Below, in pieces: positions 37,301 to 52,300 of a DNA stretch of 64,000 nucleotides. The stretch spans positions 79,005,079-79,069,078 of the forward strand of contig CM067367.1 of NCBI GenBank assembly GCA_034401795.1. The letters run 5' to 3'. A program made the translations under genes and the position numbers. The first letter of the stretch is position 1; every line of letters starts with the position of its first letter. Source of the stretch: Chaetoderma sp. LZ-2023a (Eukaryota > Mollusca > Caudofoveata > Chaetodermatida > Chaetodermatidae). The notes beneath the pieces were generated by a model that was not told the origin of the DNA, searched no databases, and saw only the letters and a list, made by a program, of their open reading frames with translations.

Positions 37301-40300
37301 GAAGTAATTTCTGCTAAGTTACGAGCAACTTGCCAATCAAATTATTTTTAATATATTCAACTGGTTTTTCCTTGTTGTAATGAATTTGTCATTTGTTCGG
37401 TATCATTAGTAAATATTCTGTGAAATGTTTTGACACTAATTTGGCTGGGAGCTAATGCCGCCCATGGTAGCAACACCATTCATGAGTACTCGTACTCAAG
37501 TACATTTACAATGTACTCGTACTTAACCTCAGTACAATTGCTAAAAAGTACATGTACTTGTATTCAGCCTCAAGTACTTTGCCAAAGTACTTGTACTCAG
37601 CCTCAGTACAGCTGCCTGTACTCGACCCCAACCCTGCTCTTGGTCTGCAAATGGACATTTTCTATGAGAGAAATTTTCTTGAACAAATTCGAGGGATAAC
37701 GGGTTAATAGTAGTTGAGATGACACCATAAAGACCCTATCTGATTAAACCATCACTAATAATGCACTGATGCTACTCAGTGCCATACCAGTTGTACATAT
37801 TTATCATACAGCTTTCTTCTTGTAATGGTCATTATCTGTAGTTAGTCAGTAATTAAATATTACTCATGTTGCTTCTGAGCTGTTTAAGCTCATCAAAGCT
37901 AGCTGTGATATGATTTTAACAACCACACATCACAACTACTTTGATGACTCGCACAGCCATTCATTGACATACAGAATGATTTGTCACATCATGATAACCA
38001 GGGATGCATGAAAGTTCAGATCAGCCCTTTGGGTTAACTTAGCCATATTAGAAATTTCAAGACTGTCATACAGGAAACTACTGAATATCTAAATTGACTG
38101 GAATCCATTGCTGCTTGAGCCAGCAACTGCTTCTAGCCAAATTAATTTCAAAATATTTAAAGACGTAGCTGTTAATTGGGTTTGAAATTGAAATTCTGGA
38201 TGTTTGTGTTGAAATGGGCAATTGCTGTATGTATGCTAATAGGAAACAAGATTAAACAAGTAGAGCATTTTAACCCATGCACTATTAAAAACCTCTTTAT
38301 CTACCTTTCAAGGCAGTCACACAGGTAAACTTAATAATTTGTCTGGAAACCATAATCACTGCTTAAAGCAGCAAGACCACCAAATAACTTTCAAAATGTT
38401 CAATAGAATCTTTTTAGCAGCTTAACAATTTTCATTTCTACTCATTTATTATTGAAAGTGTTGAGAGAAGGGTGGATTAGAACAGAGCTTGTGCAAGAGC
38501 ACAGTTCTTATGTCAACAAATACCTGGCCTGGGCAATTATATGCCTACTGATAAGATACTGTTCATGCATGATAATCCTGACAATGATATTGGACAAAGC
38601 CCATTATTTCACGCTCTATAGACCTCCCAACTCTTAACCTTTTAAGCCTCAATCCAGAGAAAAATGCTGCAGTGGTCTTGGAAAATGTCAATTTGCAGAC
38701 CTAGAGTAGACATCTTTTGAAATTTTAACACTGGAATACACGTAACTGGCTTGATAAGAAAGCCAGTAATTCTAGTGGAAAATCGAAACTTTCTTGAACA
38801 AATTTGAGGTTTAAAGGGTTGATCAATGTTAATATTATAAAAAGCTATTTTAAGAGTAAAGTTCAATGTTGAAGTGAAGCGAATGCTGCCATCAGTAATA
38901 ATGTTTATCAGTTATTTCTAATTTAACCTTTCACTGATGAAACTTTATATTATACATTTATAGCAATCATGCCAGACATTCAGCATATTCTTTATGAAGG
39001 AAATATTCTGTTAAATAATTTGAAAATAATTTGACTGGAAGTAATTTCTGCTAAGTTACGAGCAACTGCCAATCAAATTATTTTTAATATATTCAACTGG
39101 TTTTTTCTTGTTGTAATGAATTTGTCATTTGCTCGGTATCATTAGTAAATATTCTGTGAAATGTTTTGACACTAATTTGGCTGGGAGCTAATGCCGCCCA
39201 TGGTAGCAACACCATTCAGTCCCATTACATGTATATCCAAAATATTCAAGAAGGTACCTTTGTTTAGCATATAAATAGAGGGAAACCCCACTACAGAAGT
39301 CGTATTTTATATTTAGGGAATACACAGCAAGTCCACCCTATATACATGTATGTAGCAAGCATAGGGTAATATTATAGTACATGGCTGTTCTCCCCAACTC
39401 CCTCCATAGCCACCGTGGATGACATTTTCGTATTAACATGTATGAGTACTCGTACTCAAGTACATTTACAATGTACTCGTACTTAACCTCAGTACAATTG
39501 CTAAAAAGTACATGTACTTGTATTCAGCCTCAAGTACTTTGCCAAAGTACTTGTACTCAGCCTCAGTACAGCTGCCTGTACCCGACCCCAACCCTGCTCT
39601 TGGTCTGCAAATGGACATTTTCTATGTGAGAAATTTTCTTGAACAAATTCTAGGGATAACGGGTTAATAGTAGTTGAGATGACACCATAAAGACTATATC
39701 TGATTAAACCATCACTAATAATGCACTGATGCTACTCAGTGCCATACCAGTTGTACATATTTATCATACAGATTTCTTCTTGTAATGGTCATTATCTGTA
39801 GTTAGTCAGTAATTAAATATTACTCGTGTTGCTTCTGAGCTGTTTAAGCTCATCAAAGCTAGCTGTGATATGATTTTAACAACCACACATCACAACTACT
39901 TTGATGACTCGCACAGCCATTCATTGACATACAGAATGATTTGTCACATCATGATAACCAGGGATGCATGAAAGTTCAGATCAGCCCTTTGGGTTAACTT
40001 AGCCATATTAGAAATTTCAAAACTGTCATACAGGAAACTATTGAATATCTAAATTGACTGGAATCCATTGCTGCTTGAGCCAGCAACTGCTTCTAGCCAA
40101 ATTAATTTCAAAATATTTAAAGACGTAGCTGTTAATTGGGTTTGAAATTGAAATTCTGGATGTTTGTGTTGAAATGGACAATTGCTGTAGGTATGCTAAC
40201 AGGAAATAAGATTAAACAAGTAAAGCATTTTAACCCATGCACTATTAAAACCCTCTTTATCTACCTTTCAAGGCAGTCACACAGGTAAACTTAATAATTT

Positions 40301-49300: not shown

Positions 49301-52300
49301 TGAATGTCAATTAAGCAGGCAAAGACAAGACTACATTTGAAAATTTATCTTTGGAATTGCTGGCTCAGTCAAAAACAGCCTTCTCTTGGCCTTTAAAGGG
49401 GTTTTCCTCAACACCACTCCAGAGGCCAGTTTTGGCCGACTTGACCATTAACCCTTTAACACTCATATCAGCCAAAAAAACAGCTTCTGCAGTGGTCTTG
49501 AGAAACGTCCATATGCAGACCAAGAGGAGACTATTACTGAAGATTTATGACTGGAATGACTGACTCGATAATTCCAGTGGTAAATGTTCAAAAACAGTCT
49601 TCTCTTGGTCTGCAAATGGACATTTTCTATGAGAAAATTTATATTTTCTTGAACAAATTTGAGGGTTAAAAGGTTTAACCCCACAAAGAGGAGTATATAC
49701 ATGAAAATTTATCATTGGAATTGCTGGTTCAATCAAAAATAAACTCTTGGTCGTTAAAGGAACATTCCTCAAGCCCACTGCAGAGGCCAGTTTTGGCTGA
49801 CTTGACAATTAAAGGGTTAAATAAATTGTAACATGTCTAGCTGCTTGGACAAACAGACTTATCATTAACCTATGATTATTGAATGGAAATTCATTTTTGC
49901 ATGCAGTGACTGTGACTCAGTTATTATGTTGTGTGTCAGCCGCTTAAGCTCATCAAAGCTAGCTGTGATATGATTACAAGGTCTACACATTGCAACTACT
50001 TTGATGACTTACACAGCCGTTCATTCATGTTTTGGCATCGCTGAACCGAATGGCAAACACTGTAAGCAGGGCTCAGGCCTGGGTTAGTAATGCTCTAAAA
50101 AGAGGAAATATGAAAGAACACTGTCATAATGTCATTATGTTCAGTACCCACCAAAAATTGACAAAAGAACAGATTTTCTGCTACCTTCAATGGTTTATTG
50201 AATTTTTAAAATATTCAACAGCTTCTCTGTATGGTTGCCTTGTCAATGAGCCATCGGTGAAAGGATTAAAGAAGTGATCCGCTTTGAGCTTACAAACATT
50301 GGGTTAGTGAAATTTGCTGCGGGATAGTAAATTCAATGATGCACTATCCCATCTGGGTTATTAGAAAAAATCCTTAAAATCTACCCCTGCTGTAAGGAAC
50401 AAACAGTAGATGCAAATTAATATCAGGCTAGGGTACACGTAACTGATGGTTACTAGACCGCTTAAGCTCATCAAAGCTAGCTGTGATATGATTTTTAAGA
50501 TACACAAGTCACAGCCACTTTGACTGCTCACACAGTAGTTTATAGACATAGCTTGGGAGAATGACAAACACTATACAGCAAAAACAACACATGTACGTGT
50601 ACAAATTAAATTTAAATATGCTGCTTTAAAACTAGTGTATCTTATTATGCTTGCTTAAGCTCATCAAAGCTAGCTGTGATATGATTCTGGCATCCACACA
50701 TCACAACTGCTTTGATGACTCACACAGCAGTTCATTGACTTAGCAGTCAGGGCGAGTCTCAAAACCAACTACTTTTACCATTTAATGGCCAAGCTGGACA
50801 ACACCTTCCCTGCAGTGGTCAGGAGGCATGGCTGGCATGCCCATTTACAGATGAACACTATCTTTGAATATTTACCATTAACCGAGCCAGTCATTCCAGT
50901 GGTAAATTGTAAAAAAAATCTCTTCTCTTTGACTACACATGGACATTCAATAACCAGATATTTTGATTTCTGTGACCAAATTATACCATTAAAGGGTTAA
51001 TATAATGGCTCAAGAAATTCATCACCAGGACAGTAAAAACACATACTTGACATATACATGTACATGATATCAATAAATAGCACACATCAGCGACTGGGTT
51101 AAATATTTCTAAAATAATATTTTCAAACCAAGATTTCTAAAATTCACAATGTCACATTTCTAAACTAGATGATGCAGATTGACCATATAGCATACTGTGT
51201 AATATCTAGGGCTGGTGCTTCAGCTAACCTGGGCATCATTCAGGAATCAGCCTATTTTTGGTGATAGTCTTGGATGGCTATGTCAGCCATATTAGTTAGT
51301 CAGTCTGAACTAGCACTAGGCTGGCTGGTGGTGAAGTGAGGCTCTCAGTTCATGCTTAGCTGGTAATCAGCTTTGACAGAGAGCACTTCTAGATATACAG
51401 TAGGTAATATAGCGGGTTAAAATAAGTGGTGCCTTAGTCTGCATGATTTAGAAATAAAAATTACTGTACTCTCCAGAAACAAAACCAAACAAATTGCATA
51501 ATAATTAATAAAAGGTCAGATTGACCTTGAGCGTAACATGGTTAGTAGTAAATGACCAATATTGCCACCGATTAATAGTTACATACATGTAGCTTACAAG
51601 CCTCAACCACTAAATATTAGGGTTTGAAATTAAAGCTAGCCTGTTAGCCCAAGGCTAGTAGAATTTTCCCAGGACTAGCATGACTAGTACAATTTCTGAG
51701 TGACCAGCGCAGTGGGCCAGTAACTATTTGATATCTGAAACCATTATTATTTGCTGAGCTTGCCAAACCGGCCTCGGAAGTAGTCTTGGAAAATGTCCAG
51801 TTGCAGGTTATTTTTTTTAATTTACCACTCGAATGATTGGCTTGATAATTGAGCCAGTCATTCCAGTGGTTAATTTTCAAATGTAGGCTTCTCTTGGATC
51901 TTAAAATGTTTATTTTCTGTGAGAAAATTAAAATTTTCTTTGACCAAATCTGATCATTAAATCCTAAGGGGTACATTGTCATTTTTCTTACAAAAACAGA
52001 TTGAATGACATAATCCCACCATTCTGTAACATAGGGGCTAAGAGTAATCGCTTTATCTCACAAGGCTTGTAAATAATACTGATCAGCAGAGCTAGTAGAA
52101 TCTAGGGATCACTAGTCCTGCGGGCTAGAGGCACATACTGACATACACATTAATTTCAACCACTAAACATACATGAAATGAAGGAAATTTCGATTTCCCT
52201 TTCTCCGAGATCTAACAATACTCACCATTCTATTACTTCTGATACAAGCTAGCCTGGATATCTGGGCCCTAGGACTATAGACTTAGTAAGCTTTAACGAC

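What the first reader, a model, noticed from the sequence alone, without database searches (positions are those of the whole stretch)
37880..50730. Ten-hairpin miR-2 cluster inside TONSL intron 3
Ten sense-strand hairpins share a 3' arm with the protostome miR-2 seed AUCACAG and a paired 5' arm. Ten copies over 12.9 kb is a very large, very spread cluster for this family. Placement inside a DNA-repair gene intron is not something I know from other protostomes.
Basis: partly seen in the sequence, partly recalled or inferred. Interest (0 to 1): 0.95.

Follow-up and report, generated by a model that had tools for sequence, protein, structure and literature searches.

The report
Ten-copy miR-2b array in TONSL intron
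A mollusc-like animal carries ten near-identical copies of one ancient invertebrate microRNA inside an intron of the DNA-repair gene TONSL, apparently copied from the older miR-71/miR-2 cluster that still sits in another gene 33 million bases away.

Summary
Rfam finds exactly ten mir-2 hairpins (RF00047, 52.6-72.2 bits, cut-off 45.5), all on the minus strand at 37884-50722, in sense with TONSL and inside one 22,574-bp TONSL intron. All ten share the first 20 mature bases; seven match published oyster cgi-miR-2b over 24 nt. Mature arms are 98% alike, loops 65%, 150-nt flanks about 30%.

A second mir-2 locus lies on the same contig 33 Mb away: an exact miR-71 and eight mir-2-type hairpins of several subtypes (four over the Rfam cut-off) in a PPP4R1 intron, the host reported for oyster and, as ppfr-1, for C. 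elegans. The TONSL array lacks miR-71 and holds one subtype. One array hairpin groups with PPP4R1-cluster hairpin P6 (bootstrap 98); the other nine are most similar to P5. It is best read as a derived amplification, with a recent ~2-kb tandem triplication at its 3' end.

Expression, processing and co-transcription with TONSL are inferred; no reads were available. The family is known; TONSL as host, one subtype and ten copies are new as far as I searched.

The parts
50655..50722 (-). mir-2 hairpin T1; mature starts at 50681
   Evidence: Rfam 65.3 bits; z -5.87; lacks a CNNC motif 16-18 nt downstream
50462..50530 (-). mir-2 hairpin T2; mature starts at 50488
   Evidence: Rfam 59.5 bits; z -5.44
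49944..50011 (-). mir-2 hairpin T3; mature starts at 49970
   Evidence: Rfam 55.7 bits; z -4.53
45734..45801 (-). mir-2 hairpin T4; mature starts at 45760; groups with PPP4R1-cluster hairpin P6
   Evidence: Rfam 52.6 bits; z -3.57; with P6 at bootstrap 98
45507..45574 (-). mir-2 hairpin T5; mature starts at 45533; 95% identical to PPP4R1-cluster hairpin P5
   Evidence: Rfam 70.4 bits; z -5.49
44529..44596 (-). mir-2 hairpin T6; mature starts at 44555; variant 3' end GAUGUGC
   Evidence: Rfam 67.5 bits; z -4.89
43993..44061 (-). mir-2 hairpin T7; mature starts at 44019; variant 3' end GAUGUGC
   Evidence: Rfam 69.6 bits; z -7.61
41841..41909 (-). mir-2 hairpin T8; mature starts at 41867; variant 3' end GAUGAGG; in tandem unit C
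   Evidence: Rfam 68.5 bits; z -6.11
39844..39911 (-). mir-2 hairpin T9; mature starts at 39870; in tandem unit B
   Evidence: Rfam 72.2 bits; z -6.89
37884..37951 (-). mir-2 hairpin T10; mature starts at 37910; in tandem unit A; 92-nt segment identical to T9
   Evidence: Rfam 72.2 bits; z -6.89
36299..42010 (-). tandem triplication, units A 36299-38051, B 38052-40011, C 40012 to about 42010, one hairpin each
   Evidence: ungapped identity A-B 96.3%, A-C 95.1%, B-C 96.3%; repeats
35636..58209 (-). TONSL intron that holds all ten hairpins (22,574 bp)
   Evidence: GT/AG junctions and exon matches
58210..58445 (-). TONSL exon upstream of the intron (TPR)
   Evidence: tblastn with P0001, P0002, P0003, P0005; TPR_12 at 2.4e-06, below Pfam's cut-off
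35479..35635 (-). TONSL exon downstream of the intron
   Evidence: tblastn with P0001, P0002, P0003, P0005
63844..63939 (-). next TONSL exon upstream; has an acceptor, so at least one more exon lies beyond it
9466..34781 (-). stretch with the further TONSL exons (TPR, acidic, ankyrin); the gene continues past the window
   Evidence: tblastn; the ankyrin exon also hits 5ja4_D Tonsoku-like protein, though better-scoring hits among 407 are other ankyrin proteins; next exon at C9:78997920-78998114

Best explanation
This is a microRNA gene array: ten miR-2b genes in sense orientation in one TONSL intron of a mollusc-like genome. [quoted passage not shown] Shown here: hairpins, seed, sense placement, sequence conservation, similarity to P5 and P6, and the tandem units. 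Inferred: the TONSL transcript serves as primary transcript, Drosha/DGCR8 and Dicer cut each hairpin, the 3' arm is loaded into Argonaute as miR-2b, and ten genes raise the dose of one seed rather than widen the set of targets. Selection on the mature arm is inferred from its near-invariance among copies whose flanks, apart from T8-T10, no longer align.
For: Ten Rfam mir-2 hits over cut-off; stable folds. Mean pairwise identity: mature arm 98.4%, 5' arm 86.0%, loop 65.1%, flanks 32.8% and 30.3%, the flank means including the recent copies T8-T10. 94.6% of helix cells paired over 9 distinct rows against 31-40% when slid. CNNC 16-18 nt past the mature end in 9 of 10 (its role as a Drosha signal is recalled). 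Seven of ten match oyster cgi-miR-2b over 24 nt. Second locus: miR-71 23/23 and eight mir-2-type hairpins, four of them over Rfam's cut-off, between PPP4R1 exons at C9:112231102-112230950 and C9:112218594-112218487, host named. T4 groups with P6 (ultrafast bootstrap 98, FastTree 0.97); for the other nine, P5 is the closest of the eight P hairpins, 76-95% identical. Precedent: in oyster six mir-2 in a PPP4R1 intron, best host correlation r = 0.93 (PMC4138081 section 6).
Against: No small-RNA or transcript reads, so expression and 5'-end precision are untested. Compensatory change is nearly absent: 2 pairs, reached by 98 of 500 shuffles; of 31 pairs 10 never vary, 10 vary on one side, 9 depart only by unpaired cells. 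The hairpin tree is short (about 100 columns) and most inner forks are weak; T1-T3 are only 76-84% identical to P5, and both trees put T1 beside T4 and P6 (FastTree 0.81, bootstrap 68). Direction (PPP4R1 to TONSL) rests on published hosts and on miR-71, not on an outgroup genome. Host and intronic-miRNA expression often disagree: strong co-expression in 21 of 76 oyster pairs. The genome-wide mir-2 list may be incomplete: 60 of 519,328 candidates were scored, and P1, P2, P7 and P8 were not among the 14 matches; those four rest on seed and fold alone, without shuffles. Rfam listed no miR-71 at the second locus; it rests on 23/23 identity and its fold.
Confidence: 0.82

Rival explanations
1. The array is a real miRNA cluster but is transcribed from its own intronic promoter, so TONSL is only a landing site and there is no host coupling.
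For: The first hairpin lies 7,487 bp from the upstream exon, leaving room for a promoter; open frames of a transposable element lie in between. Strong host-miRNA co-expression was seen in only 21 of 76 oyster pairs.
Against: All ten are in sense with the host, and the oyster mir-2 copies in PPP4R1 are reported to follow their host, best r = 0.93.
Confidence: 0.4
2. The likeness of the hairpins is kept by gene conversion among copies (concerted evolution), not mainly by selection on each copy.
For: T5 and P5 are 96% identical over 101 bp and the match stops there; flanks of array copies against P5 and P6 exceed shuffles in only 2 of 40 comparisons. T9 and T10 hairpin segments are identical while their units differ by 3.7%.
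Against: Loops and 5' arms differ between copies while the mature arm hardly does; conversion tracts of about 22 bp on one arm would be needed to explain the mature arm alone.
Confidence: 0.2
3. Part of the array (the three ~2-kb units) is an assembly artefact, so the true number is eight.
For: T9 and T10 hairpin segments are identical and the units are 95-96% alike.
Against: Units differ by substitutions and indels (A-B: 62 mismatches, 335 gap columns), and they lie in tandem on one 130.6-Mb contig.
Confidence: 0.05
4. The hairpins are chance or transposon palindromes rather than miRNAs.
For: The window holds other very stable palindromes, e.g. 57611-57708 and a dispersed repeat with 32 places.
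Against: Sites other than the ten and their antisense score at most 22.2 bits with the array's model against 83-110 for the ten, and only the ten reach any Rfam gathering score.
Confidence: 0.01

Closest known systems
mir-2 cluster in a PPP4R1 intron (oyster, six mir-2; C. elegans mir-2 in ppfr-1), PMC4138081 section 6
   Same: Same family, several mir-2 copies inside an intron, said to have grown by tandem duplication; this genome keeps a miR-71/mir-2 cluster in PPP4R1 at C9:112220156-112230477.
   Different: The window array is in TONSL, has no miR-71, has one subtype only, and has ten copies.
cgi-miR-2b (renamed cgi-miR-2b-1) of Crassostrea gigas, PMC4941716 Table 1
   Same: 24-nt mature sequence identical in seven of ten copies; the other three differ by one base.
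   Different: The table lists one such sequence; its genomic host is not stated in the passages I saw.
mir-71/mir-2 clusters of chelicerates, PMC4987109 (passages)
   Same: Duplicated clusters on separate scaffolds, tandem mir-2 gain, up to six mir-2 in one cluster.
   Different: There the second clusters described also have miR-71; here the second locus lacks it.
Drosophila mir-2/13 clusters (passages of PMC3763532 and PMC4138081)
   Same: mir-2 loci without miR-71, some intronic (spitz, CG7033).
   Different: Fewer copies per cluster and other host genes.

Membership tests
mir-2 family (Rfam RF00047) | covariance-model score over the gathering score of 45.5 | tested here: met
   10 of 10 at 52.6-72.2 bits, full model length 1-72
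mir-2 family (Rfam RF00047) | 3'-arm mature with AUCACAG at positions 2-8 | tested here: met
   all ten
mir-2 family (Rfam RF00047) | mature sequence reported as a miRNA in a related animal | tested here: met
   oyster cgi-miR-2b, 24 of 24 nt in seven copies
functional miRNA gene (annotation criteria, recalled) | stable hairpin with long arm complementarity, better than shuffles | tested here: met
   z -3.57 to -7.61; 31-pair consensus helix
functional miRNA gene (annotation criteria, recalled) | reads with a fixed 5' end and a 2-nt offset star strand | not testable with these tools
   no small-RNA reads held
canonical miR-71/miR-2 cluster | miR-71 in the same cluster | tested here: not met
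   window: no match with up to 3 mismatches over 22 nt, best 15 of 23; 20 kb upstream and 10 kb downstream: best 15 of 23 and 14 of 23, no Rfam match; present at the PPP4R1 locus
canonical miR-71/miR-2 cluster | PPP4R1 intron as host (as in PMC4138081) | tested here: not met
   host is TONSL; PPP4R1 hosts the other cluster
TONSL intron location | array between two exons contiguous in TONSL homologues | tested here: met
   P0002 residues 55-132 then 128-186; P0001 44-118 then 115-173
TONSL intron location | third intron by number | tested here: inconclusive
   one exon with an acceptor upstream; first coding exon not found in 20 kb

The most novel reading that the evidence does not exclude
miR-2b spread, or is kept uniform, as a hairpin-sized unit: a ~100-bp pri-miRNA copied or converted between two genes 33 Mb apart was amplified tenfold inside a replication-fork repair gene, so that TONSL transcription delivers a large single-seed dose that damps apoptosis while forks are repaired. 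The coupling is untested. The hairpin-sized part rests on matches that stop about 50 nt from the mature start (T5-P5, T4-P6) and on flanks that beat shuffles in only 2 of 40 comparisons, T3 and T7 against P5's 3' flank, where dispersed repeats lie at 112221869-112221941 and beside T3 and T7. Against it: plain decay of old flanks explains the same pattern; a lenient T7-P5 alignment runs 277 columns at 71%; and a repeat lying between P5 and P6 recurs between T7 and T8 in the same orientation, which could be a trace of a longer copied segment.
Probability: 0.12. Interest if true: 0.7.

Novelty: new member of a known kind. Interest (0 to 1): 0.45.

Why it matters
One genome shows a miR-71/miR-2 cluster in its ancestral-type host and a derived array that kept one subtype and multiplied it tenfold in another gene. 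That separates host-gene coupling from copy number and makes miRNA dosage, host capture and concerted evolution testable with small-RNA and long-read data from one species. It also warns that counting mir-2 genes by mature sequence would collapse nine loci into one: seven array copies and P5 and P6 are identical over 24 nt, and all ten array copies and P5 and P6 over 20.

Tried and rejected
Checked and dropped: miR-71 in the window; degenerate extra copies; the MIR8007 and similar Rfam rows, all below their cut-offs; the extra TATCACAG sites at 9952, 32937 and 43846. At the PPP4R1 locus, nine minus-strand TATCACAG sites lie in the 40 kb; eight were counted, and the ninth, at 112213163, was dropped because it lies outside that intron and its seed falls in the loop side of the fold; six plus-strand TATCACAG sites were dropped for weak or unlike folds. 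Remnants of another host gene in the TONSL intron: ten ORFs, only one weak hit at 0.086. Compensatory change as proof of structure failed. The retroelement ORF did not identify the species (one metagenome hit). The mature 20-mer is absent from the bacterial/archaeal and viral contig collections, as expected for an animal miRNA.

Species: the TONSL tree puts the window with molluscs (100/98; no other lophotrochozoans sampled). The PPP4R1 tree groups it with bivalves and gastropods against two annelids (96/95), with bivalves plus gastropods together without it at 88/88. So a mollusc or near relative, perhaps neither bivalve nor gastropod; unnamed. Cephalopods were in the TONSL tree only.

Literature: three searches had TONSL or tonsoku among their terms. 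One search gave two papers, by title human-disease reviews; in the 20 listed of 451 and the 15 listed of 32 'tonsoku' occurs in none. Other searches looked for mir-2 clusters or the sequence. Subscription papers, including two DOIs I tried for miR-2 evolution, are not held; MirGeneDB and miRBase were not available. Seen of papers: section 6 of PMC4138081 plus passages; passages only of PMC4941716, PMC3763532, PMC4987109, PMC5111886, PMC7523956, PMC6627748, PMC7328434, PMC12691275, PMC7773633.

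Full report
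Observation. cmscan of the window gives 10 matches over gathering score, all RF00047 mir-2, all on the minus strand, from 37884 to 50722. Each shows UAUCACAG on the 3' arm and a paired 5' arm. Energies of 92-93-nt segments are -28.2 to -40.8 kcal/mol, z -3.57 to -7.61; no shuffle of 200 does as well for nine, one of 200 for the hairpin at 45734. A model built from the ten gives them 83.3-109.9 bits; its other matches are antisense overlaps (up to 36.9) and unrelated sites (up to 22.2). So the number ten is exact for the window.

Host. Joined protein pieces from the minus strand retrieve 272 proteins, 120 listed: the best are from Sinanodonta woodiana (named hypothetical protein) and Mytilus coruscus (named NFKBIL2), then many named tonsoku-like, with unrelated ankyrin proteins further down. 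tblastn with 12 of them maps exons in order across the window. The exons at 58445-58210 and 35635-35479 are adjacent in the homologues and have GT and AG borders; by my reading they join in phase. One intron of 22,574 bp thus holds all ten hairpins, the first 7,487 bp from the donor and the last 2,248 bp from the acceptor. An exon at 63939-63844 has an acceptor, so at least one more exon lies upstream; it was not found in the next 20 kb. 'Intron 3' is therefore likely, not proven. TONSL continues past the low end of the window, with an exon at C9:78997920-78998114.

Sequence pattern. The first 20 mature bases are identical in all ten and 23 in seven; T6 and T7 end GAUGUGC, T8 ends GAUGAGG. Mean pairwise identity is 0.984 for the mature arm, 0.860 for the 5' arm, 0.651 for the loop, and 0.328 and 0.303 for the 150-nt flanks, where T8-T10 are the exception. 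The consensus helix has 31 pairs; 94.6% of cells pair against 31-40% when slid by 1-3 columns. Only two pairs have changes on both sides, which 98 of 500 shuffles reach. A CNNC motif lies 16-18 nt past the mature end in 9 of 10, not in T1 (its role is recalled). The copies are related by descent, so this is not nine independent observations.

Second locus. The window's genome is held (G000, 2.44 Gb; window = C9:79005079-79069078). A search with RF00047 gave 14 matches over cut-off, ten here and four at C9:112221137-112223219; 60 of 519,328 candidates were scored. Reading 40 kb there (L009-L012) gave an exact miR-71 (23 of 23, fold -39.4) at 112230477, which Rfam did not list, and mir-2-type hairpins with mature starts at 112229918 (P1), 112223897 (P2), 112223176 (P3), 112222731 (P4), 112222082 (P5), 112221163 (P6), 112220729 (P7) and 112220156 (P8), all on the minus strand. 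P3-P6 pass the Rfam cut-off; P1, P2, P7 and P8 rest on seed and fold (-25.9 to -39.0), not tested against shuffles. P2 has the 23-nt sequence printed for cgi- and lgi-miR-2d. P5 and P6 are miR-2b type. [quoted passage not shown] Oyster has six mir-2 in a PPP4R1 intron and one in SMC4, and C. elegans mir-2 is in ppfr-1 (PMC4138081, section 6). I infer that the PPP4R1 locus is the ancestral type and the TONSL array is derived.

Origin of the array. Against the eight PPP4R1-cluster hairpins, nine array copies are closest to P5 (76-95% identity) and T4 is closest to P6 (85%). T4 with P6 has ultrafast bootstrap 98 and FastTree support 0.97; most other forks are weak, and T1 falls beside T4 and P6 in both trees (0.81 and 68). 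So at least two founders are likely. Among the 70 BLAST rows printed, matches at the hairpins are 68-113 bp long; the others are repeats shared by both regions. With lenient scoring T5-P5 and T4-P6 stop about 50 nt from the mature start, while T7-P5 runs 277 columns at 71%. Flanks of the ten copies against those of P5 and P6 exceed 20 shuffles in 2 of 40 comparisons, T3 and T7 against P5's 3' flank, where dispersed repeats lie. A repeat between P5 and P6 recurs between T7 and T8 in the same orientation, and also elsewhere in the PPP4R1 region reversed. Whether copies moved as small units or the flanks have decayed is open. The last step is clear: units 36299-38051, 38052-40011 and 40012 to about 42010 are 95-96% identical without gaps and each holds one hairpin.

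Mechanism. Shown: sense orientation in an intron, hairpin form, near-invariant mature arm. Inferred: processing from the TONSL primary transcript, loading of the 3' arm, repression through the miR-2 seed, and a raised dose of one seed. For the family's action I rely on PMC4941716 (abstract and passages): in oyster a different subtype with the same seed, miR-2d, lowered CgIkB2 and haemocyte apoptosis and raised phagocytosis. Host coupling is plausible (oyster best r = 0.93) but was strong in only 21 of 76 oyster pairs.

Known or new. A known family and a known habit (tandem growth, intronic home). New as far as searched: TONSL as host, ten copies in one array, a single subtype, no miR-71. In the passages seen, the largest single mir-2 clusters had six copies (PMC4138081, PMC4987109). 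MirGeneDB and miRBase could not be consulted.

Noticed in passing
G000 C9:112220156-112230477 (L010, L011): miR-71 plus eight mir-2-type hairpins of several subtypes in a PPP4R1 intron, 10.3 kb.
   Followed up: yes
52249-55945: Minus-strand open frames in a GC-rich stretch inside the same TONSL intron, upstream of the array, with a weak phage-integrase-like N-terminal match (53695-54456, below Pfam's cut-off), suggesting a tyrosine-recombinase element; a related copy lies at about 286-2429 (tblastx).
   Followed up: partly
10445-60630, e.g. 49016-49216 and 60474-60630: A dispersed, partly palindromic repeat with 32 places in the window and 19 in the 40-kb PPP4R1 region; it folds into stable hairpins and gives sub-threshold miRNA matches.
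   Followed up: partly
42731-43146: A second, rarer repeat that also lies between P5 and P6 at the PPP4R1 locus (112221427-112221698, same orientation) and once more there reversed.
   Followed up: partly
57611-57708: Long inverted repeat, z -8.19, in the same intron upstream of the array; no family match over cut-off.
   Followed up: partly
16265-17289: Tc1/mariner-type transposase in two overlapping frames (DDE_3 and HTH_Tnp_Tc3_2 over cut-off).
   Followed up: no
24336-24619: 71 perfect copies of a GTGC tetranucleotide in a TONSL intron.
   Followed up: no
15544-15694: CA microsatellite of 76 units starting about 17 bases past the donor of a TONSL ankyrin exon.
   Followed up: no
21483-22176 and 61749-62614: Minisatellites within TONSL introns: 63-bp unit x 11 and 40-bp unit x 21.8.
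   Followed up: no
45986-47037: 159-bp tandem repeat x 6.6 between hairpins T4 and T3, part of the reason the array is so spread.
   Followed up: no
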